In this document: in pieces, positions 523 through 61,134 of the stretch
How positions within the stretch are numbered: the first letter of the stretch is position 1
Layout of the letters: every line of letters starts with the position of its first letter
Source: Herbiconiux aconitum
GTDB taxonomy: Bacteria; Actinomycetota; Actinomycetes; Actinomycetales; Microbacteriaceae
NCBI RefSeq assembly: GCF_024979235.1
Contig: NZ_JANLCM010000002.1
Span: 1,302,001 to 1,366,000 of the forward strand
Length of the DNA stretch: 64,000 nucleotides
Direction of reading: 5' to 3'
Notes under the pieces: generated by a model
The model's database searches: none
Told to the model about the DNA's origin: nothing
Seen by the model: only the letters and a program-made list of their open reading frames with translations
Position numbers and translations under genes: made by a program

Positions 523-574
523 ACTCGTCCCGAACGGGGCAGAATTCGGCGATCCTGCCCGGTTCGGGACGAGT
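523..574. repeat. Palindrome between convergent genes (possible bidirectional terminator)
   Basis: Twenty-base arms (523-542 and 555-574) pair with one mismatch around a 12-base loop. The left arm starts ACTCGTCCCGAA. There is no U-tract on either side. It lies between the converging stops of the flavin oxidoreductase and ogt. A related ACTCGTCCCGAATCGGG arm occurs at 14898. Confidence 0.75.
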
Positions 575-1076: not shown

Positions 1077-2851
1077 GGGGTGGTCTCCTTCGAGAGAGCA
1101 GGGGGCGTGGATGCCGGGCGGCGCCGGGCGGGTGGTGGAGCGGCCGGCGGTGCGGGGGCGGCGGTGCGCGGAGGGGGCTCCGGTGTCGGCGCGTCGGCGG
1201 GGGCGGGGCCGGGGCCGGGGCGGGCGGGCCGGCGGGCCGTCGCCGCATCGGCGGCCGCACCCCAGAGGTGCAGGCACAGGTAGGAGCGCCAGGGTGCGTA
1301 GTCGGCGGCCCATCCGGCCAACTCGCGCGGCGCATCCGGAAACCCGAGCGACCGGGCTCCGGCTCGCACCGCGACATCGCCCGTGAGCAGGATGTCGGGG
1401 TTGCCGAGCACGCGCATGGCGAGGTAGCCGGCGGTCCAGTCGCCGATGCCGGGGAGCGCGGTGAGCCGGCGGCGGAGCTCGGCCGCGTCGTCGCCCGACG
1501 AGAGTTCGAGCTCGCCGGACACCAGGGCTTCGGCCACGGCGACCACGGTGGCGATCTTGGCCCGTGGTCCGTAGAGCACCGATCCGGCGTGCTCGGCGAT
1601 TTGCGCCGCAGTCGGGAAGAGCAGAGTGGGCGCGCTCGGGGTGCCGCCGGCGAGTCCGGCACCCGTCGCCGTCGCCGTCTCCGTCGCAGTCTCCGTCGAC
1701 TCGAAGGGTGAGCCGGCGGCGACGGCGAGGCGGTGCAGCATCGTGCGGGCGGCGGAGACGGTGATCTGCTGACCGATGATGGCGCGGAACAGCATCTCGT
1801 GCGCGTCGACCGCGCCCGGCAAGCGGATGCCCGGCACCCGGGCGATGCGCGCGGTGAGCGCTCGGCGCGCGGCATCCAGGCCACCTGCCGCGATTTCGGG
1901 AGGAGCTGCGTGAGACGAAGGTCGTATGCGGGTGTCGTGCGACGCTGCTCCTCCCGAATCGACACCCGCGCCCGTGGCAACGGCCGCGAGGGCCGCATCG
2001 ATCGCCACGGGGTCGGCATCGAGATCGAAGAGTCGACGGATGCGCGCCACGAGCACCGGCAGATCGCCGAGTGCGGTGAGGTGCGCTTCGAGCAGCAGAC
2101 GCGACCCGCTGTGCCGCACGGTGAACCACGCCGGTCCGCCGGGCAAGGCGAGCGACCGGGTGTACGAGTCGGGGGCTGCGATCTCCACGCCCGGGATCGC
2201 CCGGGCCGCGAGCCACGCGAACACCCCGGCCGCGTCGAAGGGCTCGCGATAGGGCAGCGACAGCGCGATCGACCCCGGTGTCGCGACGTTCGCCCGCGAC
2301 TGCCGGGCCCGGATCTCGGTGGGCGTCAGCTCGAACACCTCGCCGACCGTGTCGTTGAACTGCCGGATGCTCGTGAACCCGGCAGCGAAGGCGATGTCGG
2401 CCATCGGGAGATCCGTCGAGGTGAGCAGGGTGCGTGCGGTCTGCGCCCGGTGTGCCCGCGAGAGCGCGAGCGGGCCGGCGCCGAGCTCCTGGCGCAGCAC
2501 GCGGGTGAGGTGGCGGGAGGAGTAGCCGAGGCGCCGGGACAGACCGTCGACGCCCTCGCGCTCGATCAGCCCGTCGGCGATCAGCCGCATGGCGCGCGCG
2601 GCCAGGTCGTCTCGCAGGTTCCAGGCCGGGGTGCCGGGCACGGCTTCGGGCAGGCAGCGTTTGCAGGCGCGGTAGCCCGCCTCGTGGGCCGCCGCGCTCG
2701 TCTCGTAGAAGGTGACGTTGACCGCCTTCGGCGTGCGCGCCGGGCAGCTCGGGCGGCAGTAGATGCCGGTCGAGCGCACCGCCGTGATGAACTGACCGTC
2801 GAATCGCGGGTCGCGGGAGGCGATGATCCGGTAGCGCTCGTCGAAGTCCAT
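1073..2851 (-). CDS. Ada metal-binding/AraC/AlkA fusion: DNA-3-methyladenine glycosylase 2 and adaptive-response regulator
   Basis: A 592-residue fusion. Residues 1-70 form an Ada-type zinc domain with the four cysteines C32, C36, C63 and C66, where methylphosphotriesters would be accepted. An AraC-type helix-turn-helix follows (about 80-175, with [16 protein letters not shown]). The AlkA N-domain and HhH-GPD glycosylase domain come next, with [15 protein letters not shown] and a likely catalytic Asp near residue 490 in GDVAVR. Two oddities: a palindromic insertion encodes residues about 298-320, and a proline-rich tail of about 50 residues ends the protein. It overlaps ogt by four bases. Family knowledge predicts autoregulated alkylation repair; induction is not visible in sequence. 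Confidence 0.9.
1892..1960. repeat. In-frame palindromic element inside the Ada-AlkA gene (copy 1)
   Basis: Arms TTCGGGAGGAGCTGCGT (1895-1911) and ACGCTGCTCCTCCCGAA (1942-1958) pair with one mismatch around a 30-base loop. On the coding strand it reads as 24 codons of the pattern SGGA-x2-HD-x5-SS-x-A-PPE, between the AlkA N-domain and the glycosylase domain. A sequence of the same length and frame lies in the oxygenase gene at 6191-6256. Confidence 0.8.
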
Positions 2852-2939
2852 GGGTCGATTCTGACACGGGCCTCCGACGCCTTCTAGCGGGAATCGGACA
2901 TCGCGGTGCGGTGTCGGTGGCCCGACGTATGGTCAAGAC

Positions 2940-4085
2940 ATGCCGACCAATCCCCGCGACATCTGCCGAGCAGCATCCCCGTCTCGCCCGCCTCTTCGCA
3001 CCCTCCGCGCCCAGTCGATCGTGCCGCCCTACCTGCTCGCGCGCATCGCCGCGGCCGACGCCTTCGGCATGGCCAAGGCGGCCGAAGCGGCGCGCAGGTC
3101 GTTGCTGGCCGACCCGCCGTTGCGGGAGGAGCGGGAGCGCGCATCCGATCGCACGCCCGCGACTCCCCCGTCGGCGCTGGCGGTCCCGGGCGCGGCTGCA
3201 GCCGTCGATCGCACCGTCTTCGACGCGGGCAACACCGAGACGCTGCCCGGTCGGGTGGTGCGCCGAGAGACGGATGCGCCGGTCGACGATGTGGCGGTGA
3301 ACGAGGCGTTCGACGGCCTGGGCGCCACCCACGCGCTGCTGCTGGAGGCGTTCGGTCGCGATTCGGTCGACGGCAAGGGCCTGCCGCTCTTGGCCACCGT
3401 GCACTACGGCCGCGACTACGACAACGCGTTCTGGGACGGGGAGCGCATGGTGTTCGGCGACGGCGACGGCGAGGTGTTCGGCCGGTTCACGGCGTCGCTC
3501 TCGGTGATCGGGCACGAACTGACGCACGGCGTCACGCAATACACGGCGGGCCTGGTCTATGAGGGGCAGTCCGGTGCGTTGAACGAGTCGTTCTCCGATG
3601 TGATGGGCGCACTCGTCGAGCAGCATCAGCTCGGCCAGAGGGCGGATGCGGCGAGCTGGCTGATCGGCGAAGGGCTCTTCACCGACGCGGTCGAGGGGCG
3701 CGCGCTCCGGTCGATGATCGCGCCGGGCACGGCCTACGACGACGACGTGCTCGGCAAAGACCCGCAACCGGCCGACATGGCGGGGTACATCGACACCCGA
3801 GACGACAACGGTGGGGTGCACCTGAATTCGGGCATCCCGAACCGGGCGTTCGCGCTCGCGGCCACCGAGCTCGGTGGGTTCGCGTGGGAGGGTGTGGGGC
3901 AGGTCTGGTACGACACCGTGGTGGGGGTCACGGAGCCTCTCGACCCTCGCGCGACGTTCGCGCAGTTCGCTGACGCGACGGTGGGCGCCGCGCGGGCGCG
4001 CTTCGGCGCGGAGTCGGCGGAACTCTCGGCGATCGAGCGGGCATGGCGTACCGTGGGCGTGAGGAGCGATGACACCCCAGGATGA
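2940..4085 (+). CDS. Protealysin-like M4 zinc metalloprotease
   Basis: A 381-residue thermolysin-family protease. It has no signal peptide; the N-terminus carries a short propeptide with the PPYLL motif (residues 29-33) typical of protealysin-type precursors. The catalytic HELTH is at 192-196, the third zinc ligand is Glu216 in NESFSD, and HLNSGIPNRAF supplies the usual active-site histidine region. The last 17 bases overlap the next gene, an emfourin-type inhibitor, giving a protease-inhibitor pair. No strong ribosome site precedes the ATG. Protealysins are commonly cytoplasmic or exported by unknown means; location here is not visible. Confidence 0.9.
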   Translation: MPTNPRDICRAASPSRPPLRTLRAQSIVPPYLLARIAAADAFGMAKAAEAARRSLLADPPLREERERASDRTPATPPSALAVPGAAAAVDRTVFDAGNTETLPGRVVRRETDAPVDDVAVNEAFDGLGATHALLLEAFGRDSVDGKGLPLLATVHYGRDYDNAFWDGERMVFGDGDGEVFGRFTASLSVIGHELTHGVTQYTAGLVYEGQSGALNESFSDVMGALVEQHQLGQRADAASWLIGEGLFTDAVEGRALRSMIAPGTAYDDDVLGKDPQPADMAGYIDTRDDNGGVHLNSGIPNRAFALAATELGGFAWEGVGQVWYDTVVGVTEPLDPRATFAQFADATVGAARARFGAESAELSAIERAWRTVGVRSDDTPG

Positions 4086-4506
4086 CGACACGACCCCCCG
4101 TTCACCAGCGGCTGGGGCCTCGGATGCGGGCGGCGACGGCGCCGGCCCGGCGGAGGACGCCGGCGGGCACGAACTGCGCATCACGGTCGCACGCTCGGGC
4201 GGGATCGCGGGCATCGGACCGACCTGGTCGGTGACCGCGTCGGAGGAGGCGGATGTCGACTCCTGGCTGTCGCTCGTCGAGTCATGCCCCTGGGACCCAC
4301 CGGAGACCGCTGAAGCAGGCGCTGCCGGTGACGGACGCCCGATCGGCGGCGGTGCCGATCGCTTCGTCTACACGATCCGCGTCTTCCTCCCCACCGCGGA
4401 AGAGCGCGACGCCCGAGTCCCGGAGCAGCGCCTCGACGGGCCCTGGCGAAACCTCGTCGATCGGGTGAAGGATGCGTCCCCCCGGACCGGAGGCGGGCCG
4501 CGCTGA
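4069..4506 (+). CDS. Emfourin-like protealysin inhibitor
   Basis: A 145-residue protein overlapping the 3' end of the M4 protease gene. After an acidic, Gly/Ala-rich stretch of about 35 residues comes ELRITVARSGGIAGI, matching the N-terminal strand and RSGG-x-AG signature of emfourin, the protealysin inhibitor family. A later strand reads FVYTIRVFLP. Family knowledge says emfourins block their cognate M4 protease by inserting into the active site. Tight coupling fits equal production with the protease. An acidic low-complexity N-terminus and a Gly-rich insert near residue 88 are unusual; assignment rests on motif and context. Confidence 0.8.
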   Translation: MTPQDDDTTPRSPAAGASDAGGDGAGPAEDAGGHELRITVARSGGIAGIGPTWSVTASEEADVDSWLSLVESCPWDPPETAEAGAAGDGRPIGGGADRFVYTIRVFLPTAEERDARVPEQRLDGPWRNLVDRVKDASPRTGGGPR

Positions 4507-4633
4507 GCGGGCACAGTGTAGATCGCTCGGTCGAGCTGTCCGCCGGCACCCGTCGCGTGCCACCTACCGACGCCTGAGCAGGTCGCGGGGGGCTCCGAGC
4601 GAGCCACTCCTCGGGCCACGGCAGAATGGGAGG

Positions 4634-5485
4634 ATGAGCTCCGCAGCCGGCCCCGACCGCACCTCGGCCGCACCCGGTTCCGGCGCGGTGCTCGAGTTCC
4701 GCGACGTGCGCTTCGTGCGTCGCGGGCGGGTGATCCTCGACGCCATCGACTTCGCGGTGCGCCCCGGCGAGCACTGGGCCCTGATCGGCCCGAACGGTGC
4801 GGGAAAGAGCACGATGCTGAGCCTTGGCGGCGCCCTGCAGCATCCGACGTCCGGCGAGGTCTTCGTGCTCGGCCACCGCATCGGGCGGGTCGAGTTGCAG
4901 CAGCTTCGGCGATCCATCGGGCACGTGAACCCGCGGCATCCGTTGACCTCGGCACTCACCATCCGCGAGGTTGTACTCACCGGCATCACGGGCACCATTG
5001 AACTCGTGCCTCGCTGGGAGCCGACTCCCGCCGAGTTCGCGCGGGCGAACGACTACGTGCACCTGCTCGGCCTCGACGGCAAGGCGGAGGAGGCGTGGAC
5101 GACGCTGTCCCAGGGCGAACGCGGCCGCACCCTGATCGCGCGGGCCCTGATGACCGACCCCGAGCTGCTGCTGCTCGACGAACCCTCGACCGGCCTCGAC
5201 GTCGCCGCTCGTGAGCAGTTGCTCGACACCGTCGACCGCGTGCGCATCGCCCACCCCGCTCTCGCCTCCGTGCTCGTGACGCACCACCTCGAGGAACTCC
5301 CGCGCAGCACCACGCACGCGATGCTGCTCGCCGACGGACGCATCACCTCGATCGGACGGGCGACGGATGTGCTCACCACCGCGAACATCACCGCCTGCTT
5401 CGCGCATCCGATCGAGATCGAACACCGCCACGGCCGCTGGCACGCACGCTCGACCGCGCACGCGGCGCCGTCGAGCTCCCCCTGA
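4634..5485 (+). CDS. ABC transporter ATP-binding protein, orphan
   Basis: A 283-residue single nucleotide-binding domain. Walker A is GPNGAGKST (about 52-60), the signature is LSQGERGRTLIARAL, Walker B LLLLDEPSTGLD, and the H-loop VTHHLEELP. No permease or binding protein lies nearby, so substrate and partners are unknown; a ModF-like or soluble role is possible. The start is uncertain: the ATG directly abuts GGGAGG, leaving little spacing, while a GTG at 4687 before VLEFRDV also fits. It converges with the MpaB-like gene across a perfect 20-bp palindrome. Confidence 0.82.
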   Translation: MSSAAGPDRTSAAPGSGAVLEFRDVRFVRRGRVILDAIDFAVRPGEHWALIGPNGAGKSTMLSLGGALQHPTSGEVFVLGHRIGRVELQQLRRSIGHVNPRHPLTSALTIREVVLTGITGTIELVPRWEPTPAEFARANDYVHLLGLDGKAEEAWTTLSQGERGRTLIARALMTDPELLLLDEPSTGLDVAAREQLLDTVDRVRIAHPALASVLVTHHLEELPRSTTHAMLLADGRITSIGRATDVLTTANITACFAHPIEIEHRHGRWHARSTAHAAPSSSP

Positions 5486-5502
5486 GCCGCCCGCGTTGAC
5501 GG

Positions 5503-5563
5503 ATCGAGTGGGCACGATTCGTGCCTGAACTCCCGCGTAGGGAACGAATCGTGCCCACTCGAT
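5503..5563. repeat. Perfect 20-bp-arm palindrome, family shared with 56982
   Basis: Arms ATCGAGTGGGCACGATTCGT (5503-5522) and its exact complement (5544-5563) enclose a 21-base loop. It lies between converging stops of the ABC ATPase and the MpaB-like oxygenase. The same arm, with one base changed, recurs at 56982-57042. Confidence 0.85.
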
Positions 5564-5576
5564 GCGGGATCGCCGG

Positions 5577-6536
5577 TCAGGCGTAGTCGGTGCGGATGCG
5601 CGCCACGTAGTGCCGCTGCGGCCAACGCCGCAGGGCGCGGGGCAGCACCCGGTAGACGGGGGTGCCGACGCGCACGAGGCGCGCGAACTTCCGCTGCCGC
5701 CTGGACGACCAGGCGAAGCGGTACTCCCGCCGCACCGACTCGGGAAGCAACGCCACAGTCACGAGCCGCGCCACCGGCATCACGGTGCGGATCGGCAGGG
5801 GCGCCTTCTCGGCCCGCAGCAGCGCATCCGCCACCCCGCGGATCGTGTCGTCGACGCGCAGTGTCGCCACGGTCTCGTTCCAATAGGCGCGGAACGTCGC
5901 GCGATCCGCCGGCCACAACTCCTCGGGCATCTGGAGAGTGGTGCCGAGTCGGGCGTATTCGCGATAGACGTGATCGGCCGACGCGTCGTCGAGCGGGCCG
6001 TACACGGTCTGGTACACGGTGAGCGCCGTGTCGTAGAGCGTCGCGGCCACCCAGAGCTGCAGCTGCGGGTCGTAGGCGTCGTACGCCGGGTCGGTCGGAT
6101 GCGCGGCGCCGGGTGCGGGCACCCCGGCGAGCGCGTCTTCGTGCGTGTCATGGGGCGGCTCGGTCAGCTGGGTTTCGCCAGTGGTGTTCATTTCGGGAGG
6201 AGGAGCACTAGACGAGGCCCCCACAGGCCGGTCGTGCGCGTCTGCTCCTCCCGAAACGGAGGCCGAACCGTTCTGCGACGGACGCGGCGGGTTGCGCACC
6301 CCCGCGTGCGCCCGGTTCACGGCGCGGCGCATGAGGCGCACGTCGTCGTCCGACCCCGTGGCGAGCGCGTAGATGTAGCTGAGGGTGGCGTTGAGTCGAT
6401 CCATCGGGCGGTTCGCGAAGTCGCTGTGGCGGGCGACGCCGTACCCGATCGCGGGGTAGGCGATCTGCAGCAGGATGGCACGCCCGGCGCCGGCGAGCAA
6501 CACGCTCTCGGGGGCGATGTCGGCGAGCGTCAGCAT
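5577..6536 (-). CDS. MpaB/latex-clearing-protein-like oxygenase (DUF2236)
   Basis: A 319-residue protein of the DUF2236 family, which includes the haem-dependent rubber oxygenase Lcp and MpaB. Recognisable elements are the N-terminal GAGRAILLQIAYPAIGYGVARHS-like region (split here by function), the central LQLWVAATLYDTAL and the C-terminal FAWSSRRQRKF. The substrate of most members is unknown. Between about residues 93 and 116 it carries an in-frame palindromic insertion like one in the Ada-AlkA gene, next to a Thr/Pro/Ala-rich linker. The start has only a weak ribosome site; it diverges from the flavoprotein gene 49 bases away. Confidence 0.82.
   Translation of the reverse strand: MLTLADIAPESVLLAGAGRAILLQIAYPAIGYGVARHSDFANRPMDRLNATLSYIYALATGSDDDVRLMRRAVNRAHAGVRNPPRPSQNGSASVSGGADAHDRPVGASSSAPPPEMNTTGETQLTEPPHDTHEDALAGVPAPGAAHPTDPAYDAYDPQLQLWVAATLYDTALTVYQTVYGPLDDASADHVYREYARLGTTLQMPEELWPADRATFRAYWNETVATLRVDDTIRGVADALLRAEKAPLPIRTVMPVARLVTVALLPESVRREYRFAWSSRRQRKFARLVRVGTPVYRVLPRALRRWPQRHYVARIRTDYA
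6191..6256. repeat. In-frame palindromic element inside the MpaB-like gene (copy 2)
   Basis: The left arm TTTCGGGAGGAG(GAG)CA (6191-6207) pairs with TGCTCCTCCCGAAA (6243-6256), with one 3-base bulge. The loop shares AGACGA-GG and GTCGTGCG with the element at 1892-1960. Translation on the coding strand again gives SGGA-x2-HD-x5-SS-x-A-PPE in 24 codons, so both copies use the same frame and orientation relative to their host gene. Confidence 0.8.
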
Positions 6537-10610: not shown

Positions 10611-10692
10611 CGCGAAGTCGCCTCCCCCTCGCGAAGTCGCGCTAAGTCGGCTCTGGGGACGCTCGAAGGGCGACTTAGAGCGACTTCGCGAG
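10611..10692. repeat. Three-armed palindrome between convergent genes, family shared with 59061
   Basis: Twenty-two-base arms (10628-10649 and 10671-10692) pair with one mismatch; the core is GCGAAGTCGCGCTAAGTCG. A third partial arm, CGCGAAGTCGC, lies just upstream at 10611-10621, so two alternative pairings are possible. It sits between the converging LysR and response-regulator genes. The same core recurs at 59061-59121. Confidence 0.8.
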
Positions 10693-29152: not shown

Positions 29153-29223
29153 CTCCTCACGAATCGCCAAAATCCGCCCTCATTTCGGGGTTGGGAGTGC
29201 GGATTTTGGCGACTCGCGAGGAG
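29153..29223. repeat. Palindrome downstream of mftG
   Basis: Twenty-five-base arms (29153-29177, 29199-29223) pair with two mismatches; the perfect inner part is TCGCCAAAATCCGC. The loop is 21 bases. It starts 17 bases after the mftG stop, between codirectional genes, and may act as a terminator although no U-run follows. Confidence 0.75.
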
Positions 29224-56981: not shown

Positions 56982-57042
56982 ATCGAGTGGGCACGAATCG
57001 TCGCGCATCCGGCCTGTCTCCGACGAATCGTGCCCACTCGAT
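56982..57042. repeat. Palindrome, family shared with 5503
   Basis: Arms ATCGAGTGGGCACGAATCGT (56982-57001) and ACGAATCGTGCCCACTCGAT (57023-57042) pair with one mismatch, with a 21-base loop as in the 5503 copy but of different sequence. It lies 13 bases after the anti-sigma gene stop, ahead of the codirectional epoxide hydrolase. Confidence 0.85.
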
Positions 57043-59060: not shown

Positions 59061-59121
59061 CGCGAAGTCGCGCTAAGTCGCCCCTGCACGGCACTCAGGG
59101 GCGACTTAGCGCGACTTGGCG
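59061..59121. repeat. Palindrome with 26-bp arms, family shared with 10628
   Basis: Arms 59061-59086 and 59096-59121 pair with one mismatch around a 9-base loop; the core CGAAGTCGCGCTAAGTCG matches the element at 10628-10692. The right arm covers the stop codon of the convergent membrane-protein gene, so the element contributes its last codons. Confidence 0.85.
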
Positions 59122-61050: not shown

Positions 61051-61134
61051 GCCGAAACGACGGAGAACTCGGGCGACACGCCGCTCGCACCTCCGTCGTT
61101 TCGGTGCGGGGCCCGACTTCTCCGTCGTTTCGGC
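61051..61134. repeat. Three-armed palindrome between convergent genes
   Basis: Twenty-four-base arms (61051-61074 and 61111-61134) pair with one mismatch; the core is CGAAACGACGGAGAA. A third copy of the right arm, CTCCGTCGTTTCGG, lies in the loop (61091-61104), so the left arm has two possible partners. It starts 14 bases after the aldo/keto reductase stop. Confidence 0.8.

What the first reader, a model, noticed from the sequence alone, without database searches (positions are those of the whole stretch)
1892..6256. Palindromic element inserted in frame in two unrelated genes, resembling Rickettsia palindromic elements
The sequences at 1892-1960 (Ada-AlkA) and 6191-6256 (MpaB-like oxygenase) share palindromic arms (TTTCGGGAGGAG / CTCCTCCCGAA) and loop words (AGACGA, GTCGTGCG). 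Translated in their hosts both give 24 codons of the pattern SGGA-x2-HD-x5-SS-x-A-PPE, same frame and orientation, at domain linkers. Known analogues (RPE) occur in Rickettsia; I know of none described for actinobacteria. A mobile or repeated element that persists in coding frame is inference.
Basis: partly seen in the sequence, partly recalled or inferred. Interest (0 to 1): 0.78.

Follow-up and report, generated by a model that had tools for sequence, protein, structure and literature searches.

The report
Palindromes at Herbiconiux gene ends
The two matching palindromes belong to a family of about 44 palindromes of 66 bases with nearly identical ends, scattered through this bacterium, mostly in the gaps between genes and close behind stop codons, with a few carried in frame inside genes, much like the REP repeats known from other bacteria.

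Summary
Confirmed and extended. The host is a Herbiconiux (Microbacteriaceae). Both copies belong to a genome-wide family: 34 perfect-armed palindromes (reversed control 0), 44 copies examined. The ends TTTCGGGAGGAG/CTCCTCCCGAAA are almost invariant, the spacing is nearly fixed (62 bp between core arms in 31 of 34) and the interior is variable. Genes are not the main habitat: 39 of 44 own copies are called intergenic (16 convergent, 21 co-directional, 2 divergent), 4 inside genes, 1 at a contig edge. 26 of 37 measured copies lie within 40 nt of a stop codon. 24 of 44 sit at the position of an H. ginsengi copy; in 21 such pairs arms are 96% and interiors 64% identical, four-fold codon sites 70%, so the ends look constrained and the interiors drift in place. 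In-frame copies: Ada-AlkA, MpaB-like, amidohydrolase, probably DyP peroxidase; in H. daphne LigD and, as three tandem units, a P-type ATPase. Best reading: a REP-like family of 3'-end palindromes in an actinobacterium, with occasional tolerated coding insertions. It lacks the GTAG/CGTC tag, RAYT and a U-tract. Other palindrome families share the niche. The RPE analogy is only partly apt; function and mobiliser are unproven.

The parts
1894..1959 (.). A-type 66-bp palindromic element, in frame in the Ada-AlkA gene (residues 298-320)
1894..1905 (+). left arm TTTCGGGAGGAG
1948..1958 (+). right arm CTCCTCCCGAA
1073..2851 (-). host gene: Ada metal-binding + AraC HTH + AlkA_N (Ada-AlkA fusion); the element lies in a linker whose length varies widely among 16 genus genomes
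6191..6256 (.). A-type 66-bp palindromic element, in frame in the MpaB-like gene (residues 94-116)
6191..6202 (+). left arm TTTCGGGAGGAG
6245..6256 (+). right arm CTCCTCCCGAAA
5577..6536 (-). host gene: MPAB_Lcp_cat oxygenase-like; the element is in a loop of variable length
5503..5563 (.). a different long palindrome (20-bp arms ATCGAGTGGGCACGATTCGT) between convergent genes; same niche, other family
56982..57042 (.). second 61-bp copy of that other family, in a co-directional spacer

Best explanation
A REP-like family of dispersed palindromes in Herbiconiux. Each unit is about 66 bp: two 12-bp inverted ends of nearly fixed sequence, a nearly fixed distance apart, around a drifting interior with a small second motif and a centre close to CCGTATACGG. 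Units spread to new sites by an unidentified route and are kept mainly just downstream of stop codons, between convergent genes or between co-directional genes. There, when transcribed from either side, they could form a long hairpin at the 3' end of the message; I infer that they mark or protect transcript ends in both directions. Something that reads the end sequence itself (a protein on DNA or RNA, or the mobilising enzyme) would explain why the ends stay fixed while the interior drifts. Copies inside genes are insertions tolerated in flexible linkers: the ends carry no stop codon in any frame and 66 bp is 22 codons. Shown: family, copy number, anatomy, positions, conservation in place, sites filled in one species and not in another, in-frame copies. 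Inferred: hairpin formation in the cell, the 3'-end role, sequence-specific recognition, the route of spread and the exact size of an insertion.
For: Copy number: 34 exact-arm palindromes, control 0; 84 two-strand BLAST matches, i.e. 42 places (40 of 43 candidates scored); 93 two-strand covariance-model hits at E<=0.1 (150 of 8136 candidates scored). Arms occur as pairs: of 81 exact 11-mers I assign 76 to elements and 5 stand alone, equal to the 5 of the reversed control (assignment by reading the list). Position: own 16 convergent, 21 co-directional, 2 divergent (P 1e-4 for few divergent and 5e-4 for many convergent against intergenic bases; 0.002 and 0.007 against junction counts); H. ginsengi 15, 18, 1 likewise. 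Nearest stop codon: median 19 nt, 26 of 37 within 40 nt. Orthology: 24 of 44 own copies map to a ginsengi copy. In 21 pairs arms are 0.957 identical and interiors 0.642, against 0.484 between non-orthologous pairs (0 of 5000 permutations reach it); four-fold sites 0.702. Both ends differ together (arm type A against B) at one orthologous site while 35 of 42 interior bases agree (L008/L133). Pairing excess in ginsengi next to the arms (P 0.0005). Sites filled in own but not in ginsengi: L005, L009, L014, and L011 by its left flank.
Against: In own the two halves of a copy are not more alike than halves of different copies (P 0.28; 0.12 over all, 0.67 next to the arms, 0.014 in the centre), so pairing is not what holds the interior. 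No U-tract: T is 7.6% of the 12 nt after the arm. In own co-directional spacers only 12 of 21 copies are nearer the upstream stop than the downstream start (15 of 18 in ginsengi). In H. daphne the place bias is weaker: 4 convergent, 3 co-directional, 2 divergent, 4 inside of 13. Most convergent spacers have no long palindrome (5 of 12 in the window, 13 of 62 in 400 kb of ginsengi have one), so the element is not obligatory. No mobilising enzyme was found and no target duplication could be read. Arm conservation is inflated to some degree because copies were found by their arms.
Confidence: 0.6

Rival explanations
1. A DNA-level binding site: a dedicated protein binds the paired arms on double-stranded DNA (nucleoid site or transcription roadblock at gene ends); the inner motif changes with the protein.
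For: Nearly single-base fixed spacing: 31 of 34 exact own copies are 62 bp, and 11 of 11 distinct B-type copies are 62 bp though 38-44 interior bases were allowed. Arms are fixed and occur as pairs. The inner motif differs by species (ACGA in own, ACC in ginsengi) at sites that descended in place. No copy-specific pairing in own over all. A 750-kb element-free stretch lies roughly opposite dnaA (P 0.02).
Against: The stop-codon bias is not expected of a chromosome-structuring site. Pairing excess in ginsengi next to the arms. No candidate protein was sought or identified.
Confidence: 0.2
2. A purely selfish miniature mobile element (MITE- or RPE-like) with no host role: ends are kept because only copies with good ends move; gene-end position reflects where insertion is harmless.
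For: Inverted ends, constant length, species-specific variants, sites filled in one species and not in another, coding insertions absent from relatives.
Against: Copies at orthologous sites are old (four-fold identity 0.702), yet their ends have not decayed (0.957) while their interiors have. Solo exact ends, which could flank a larger element, are at control level. No Y1/RAYT transposase in own, ginsengi or daphne; other transposase families were not searched.
Confidence: 0.17
3. Chance resemblance or an ordinary protein motif shared by two genes.
Against: 34 copies against 0 for the control pattern, 39 of 44 called intergenic.
Confidence: 0.01

Closest known systems
REP / BIME repeats (GTAG- and CGTC-tagged REPs; PMC3733652: abstract, passages and section 15 seen)
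   Same: Dispersed palindromes next to 3' ends (<20 bp in convergent pairs), between convergent and co-directional genes, some inside genes and often DNA repair genes, a DNA ligase among them; grouped units.
   Different: 66 bp instead of 20-40 bp; no unpaired GTAG or CGTC tag; no RAYT in the own, ginsengi or daphne genome. The paper's main text has no word beginning with 'actino'.
Rickettsia palindromic elements (RPE; passages of PMC2229807 and PMC10969869 seen; Ogata 2002 not held)
   Same: Palindrome carried in frame inside unrelated protein genes.
   Different: Given as 105-146 bp or about 150 bp, and nearly half of those first reported are in genes; here 4 of 44 are. Different host phylum; sequence relation not tested.
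MITEs (RUP, ERIC, Correia; passages of PMC2229807 seen)
   Same: Short, inverted ends, constant length, mostly intergenic, in-frame fusions known.
   Different: No target duplication seen by eye, no related full transposon found, ends conserved in place.
TRIT / U-tract-free terminators of mycobacteria (recalled; only mentions of TRIT and RNIE in PMC3526491 were seen)
   Same: Sequence-conserved hairpin at actinobacterial gene ends (recalled).
   Different: Not compared in sequence; a scan of 4 own loci against Rfam gave no match above a family cut-off.
Neisseria DNA uptake sequences as inverted pairs (recalled)
   Same: Short fixed word found as inverted pairs at gene ends, with clade dialects (recalled).
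   Different: Here the single word is not enriched outside the pairs.

Membership tests
REP (GTAG/CGTC) | palindromes of 20-40 bp | tested here: not met
   62 bp between core arms in 31 of 34, 66 bp in all; definition
REP (GTAG/CGTC) | unpaired GTAG or CGTC tag at one end | tested here: not met
   the outer consensus is CGTT on the left and AACGG on the right, which pair; no one-sided tag in the consensus of 75 copies (orientation of copies is arbitrary)
REP (GTAG/CGTC) | extragenic, near 3' ends, convergent and co-directional spacers | tested here: met
   (weaker in H. daphne)
REP (GTAG) | RAYT (PF01797) in the genome | tested here: not met
   1 of 16 genus genomes has a PF01797 match (G003, which has no copies); own, ginsengi and daphne have none; 5 of 14 control genomes ring
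RPE | in-frame insertion in protein genes | tested here: met
   own Ada-AlkA, MpaB-like, amidohydrolase, probable DyP; daphne LigD, P-type ATPase
RPE | length about 105-146 bp | tested here: not met
   66 bp; RPE length; some RPE families are short REPs
MITE | target site duplication | tested here: inconclusive
   spacers too diverged; none seen by eye
MITE | full transposon with the same ends | tested here: inconclusive
   solo exact arms at control level in the own genome (5 against 5); their surroundings were not read
Intrinsic terminator | hairpin followed by a U-tract | tested here: not met
   hairpin predicted for the two window copies, but T 7.6% after the arm, at most 3 T in 8, 68 flanks
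DNA uptake sequence | single copies strongly enriched genome-wide | tested here: not met
Rfam RNA families | match above gathering score | tested here: not met
   4 own loci scanned; 6 sub-threshold hits to miRNA models only

The most novel reading that the evidence does not exclude
Herbiconiux marks many gene ends with a class of palindromes about 60 bp long, built in several interchangeable sequence 'dialects' (A, B, the longer-armed type in G012/G002, and unrelated families such as ATCGAGTGGGCACGAATCGT). One length rule serves all, and a dedicated factor reads the paired ends and acts in both directions at transcript ends; the dialect changes with the factor, so that old sites are rewritten in concert within a lineage.
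Probability: 0.2. Interest if true: 0.75.

Novelty: new variant of a known kind. Interest (0 to 1): 0.52.

Why it matters
REP-type repeats are reported mainly from Proteobacteria (PMC3733652, abstract), and what they do is only hypothesised. A family in an actinobacterium without RAYT, whose ends are strongly conserved at orthologous sites over a divergence at which four-fold sites are 70% identical, helps to tell 'kept because it does something there' from 'recently moved'. Orthologous sites that carry different palindrome types are natural swap experiments, and in-frame copies in DNA repair proteins repeat a pattern reported for REPs elsewhere.

Tried and rejected
Uptake-sequence idea: rejected, single arms are not enriched. 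RAYT-driven REP: not supported. Classical intrinsic terminator: no U-tract. Phage or plasmid origin: the six viral-contig hits to a relaxed pattern differ in length and interior and look unrelated; one query from one own locus found nothing in plasmids. The Ciceribacter hit L073 looks like chance and was dropped before alignment A1 (75 of 76 copies used). Rfam: nothing above cut-off in 4 loci. Nucleoid-site idea: the element-free 750-kb stretch has only P 0.02 and may reflect where conserved genes lie. My early reading 'no covariation' was too broad. On the pooled alignment the cells changed on both sides (306 against 216) are reached by 0 of 500 shuffles and by no slid control, while the number of pairs with such a change (25 against 23.2) is reached by 27 of 500; much of this comes from species consensuses that differ. 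Within species, no excess in own over all, an excess in ginsengi. Four copies were called inside genes by the first, cruder gene call; three of them were re-read by coding frame: the second L019 copy is intergenic, L022 unclear (counted as edge), L010 an N-terminal extension. Of the matched pairs, 21 entered; pairs with a 63-bp member (L007, second L019 copy) and second partners of doublets were left out. The ginsengi set leaves out the four low-scoring hits L135-L138 and the Ada and MpaB sites. L039 has only one exact arm and is the most doubtful of the 44 copies; without it there are 43 copies and 6 solo arms.
Full report
Observation. Both palindromes are present as described and share arms, length and translated pattern. 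They fold well as single strands on either strand (z -3.9 to -4.9), though the fold alone proves little.

Family. A pattern of the two 10-base arms 25-55 bases apart finds 34 palindromes in the 4.16-Mb own genome and none for the reversed control. I examined 44 own copies: 34 exact, 9 further BLAST places and one B-type copy. Of the 34 exact copies 31 are 62 bp between core arms, two are 63 and one is 60. The exact 11-base arm occurs 81 times in the genome: by my reading of the list 76 in elements and 5 alone, and the reversed control also gives 5. So the unit is the pair.

Anatomy. From outside in: CGTTTCGGGAGGAG, a weakly conserved stretch with G at column 13, a second conserved motif (ACGA at columns 20-23 in own; A-C-C at 20-22 in ginsengi), then a centre close to CCGTATACGG. 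In own, the two halves of one copy are no more alike than halves of different copies (31 copies 0.548 against 0.537, P 0.28; 37 copies 0.548 against 0.528, P 0.12), with a weak signal in the centre (P 0.014) and none next to the arms (P 0.67). In H. ginsengi they are more alike next to the arms (40 copies, 0.594 against 0.501, P 0.0005), also without the copies of ACGA type (34 copies, P 0.0005), but not in the centre (P 0.11 and 0.89). On the pooled alignment of 75 the cells changed on both sides exceed all shuffles and slides, much of which reflects consensuses that differ between species.

Relatives. The named collection of 84,980 species genomes gave 37 stretches: 22 H. ginsengi, 9 H. daphne, 2 H. 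moechotypicola, 3 Subtercola boreus, 1 Ciceribacter (the window's own genome may be left out there). In the genus 4 of 16 genomes have exact-arm copies (own 34, G004 24, G001 12, G005 2) and 7 of 16 have model hits. Ten loci from G012 (8) and G002 (2) show a longer-armed variant (GTCGGTACGGGAGGAGAATC..., model match 73 bp). A second arm type B, TTTCGGGCGAAC, with the same 62-bp core, is present in 11 distinct copies in the sequence held (2 own, 9 ginsengi), several of them beside an A-type copy.

Place. Own copies: 16 convergent, 21 co-directional, 2 divergent, 4 inside, 1 edge. Background intergenic bases (464 kb: own window plus 400 kb of ginsengi): 7,473 convergent, 21,764 co-directional, 13,011 divergent. 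Few divergent: P 1e-4; many convergent: P 5e-4; by junction counts 0.002 and 0.007. H. ginsengi shows the same: 15, 18, 1, and 1 inside, of 35. In H. daphne the bias is weaker: 4 convergent, 3 co-directional, 2 divergent and 4 inside, of 13. Nearest stop codon: median 19 nt, 26 of 37 own copies within 40 nt; in co-directional spacers 12 of 21 own and 15 of 18 ginsengi copies are nearer the upstream stop. Gene calls are my own codon-score calls, not an annotation.

Evolution in place. 24 of 44 own copies lie at the position of one of 39 ginsengi copies; the Ada and MpaB sites add two more, both degenerate in ginsengi. In 21 pairs of 62 bp the arms are 0.957 identical, the interior 0.642, non-orthologous interiors 0.484 (0 of 5000 permutations reach it); four-fold codon sites are 0.702 and third positions 0.752. 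Interiors thus descend from a common ancestor and drift about as fast as four-fold sites, while arms hardly change. That copies were found by their arms inflates this to some degree. At L008/L133 the two species differ in arm type at both ends (A against B) with 35 of 42 interior bases equal; L152/L127 is the reverse case, 25 of 42. Of 17 own loci without a ginsengi partner that I compared with 400 kb of ginsengi, five had orthologous flanks there (L005, L006, L009, L011, L014), and four were aligned. L005 and L009 have short ginsengi spacers without the element; L014 and L011 (right flank not aligned) have ginsengi spacers with another, unrelated long palindrome. L006 was not looked at further. 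The L014 one belongs to a group of three in the ginsengi sequence held.

Inside genes. In 16 genus genomes the two host genes have linkers of very different length; only own and ginsengi show the segment. Other coding copies: own amidohydrolase (B type; A type in ginsengi), own DyP peroxidase N-terminus (possibly in front of the true start), daphne LigD between the primase and phosphoesterase domains, and three tandem 43-codon units in a daphne P-type ATPase. The ATPase units are lacking in 9 of 9 relatives aligned (of 120 hits listed), although three of them have other extra residues there. Different frames are used: SGGA...PPE, FGR...SRN, VREE...TSSR. 15 of 34 exact own copies are open in all six frames (element plus two bases each side as set in the script).

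Comparison. REPs (PMC3733652: abstract, passages and section 15 seen) sit mostly within 20 bp of the 3' ends of convergent genes, occur inside genes and often inside repair genes. The present family shares that, but it is longer, untagged and without RAYT in its main carriers. RPEs (passages of the reviews PMC2229807 and PMC10969869) share the in-frame insertion. I therefore call it REP-like, not a REP of the tagged families and not an RPE. My literature searches listed no description in Microbacteriaceae or other actinobacteria; the library is open-access only and I saw listings, not every paper.

Wider picture. The window holds further long palindromes (10 with arms of 12 or more against 3 and 0 in two shuffles), most of them at gene ends and some in repeated families of their own. 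The element may thus be one dialect of a broader habit of placing palindromes of about 60 bp at gene ends; 5 of 12 convergent spacers in the window and 13 of 62 in the ginsengi stretches have such a palindrome.

Noticed in passing
window 5503-5563 and 56982-57042: Two 61-bp palindromes with the same arms (ATCGAGTGGGCACGA-TCGT), in a convergent and a co-directional spacer; a similar arm occurs in Subtercola (L044:4601). A separate gene-end palindrome family.
   Followed up: partly
window 10628-10692 and 59065-59117: Two palindromes sharing AAGTCGCGCTAAGTCG, both between convergent genes.
   Followed up: partly
window 523-574, 29164-29212, 61051-61134: Further long palindromes in convergent or co-directional spacers; 523-574 has arms close to the family's arm but inside out.
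   Followed up: no
L049, L056, L060, L172 (H. ginsengi): Palindrome family with arms CGACCCGCCAAAATCCGCCC and a length of 61-73 bp; another with CCGTCAGTTCGT-like arms (L076, L135, L164, L176).
   Followed up: no
L042:2098-2416: H. daphne P-type ATPase carries three tandem in-frame 129-bp units, each with one element copy.
   Followed up: yes
L065:1189-1614: Cluster of four elements (B, A, A, A) in one H. ginsengi convergent spacer; A-B doublets also in L031, L056, L063.
   Followed up: partly
G000 C2:453-1203 kb: Element-free 750 kb roughly opposite dnaA (C1:1.036 Mb); P 0.02 for the largest gap, contig order assumed.
   Followed up: partly
L081:1452-1578: In H. ginsengi the Ada-AlkA site holds a B-type element and a truncated A-type element side by side, both in frame.
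   Followed up: yes
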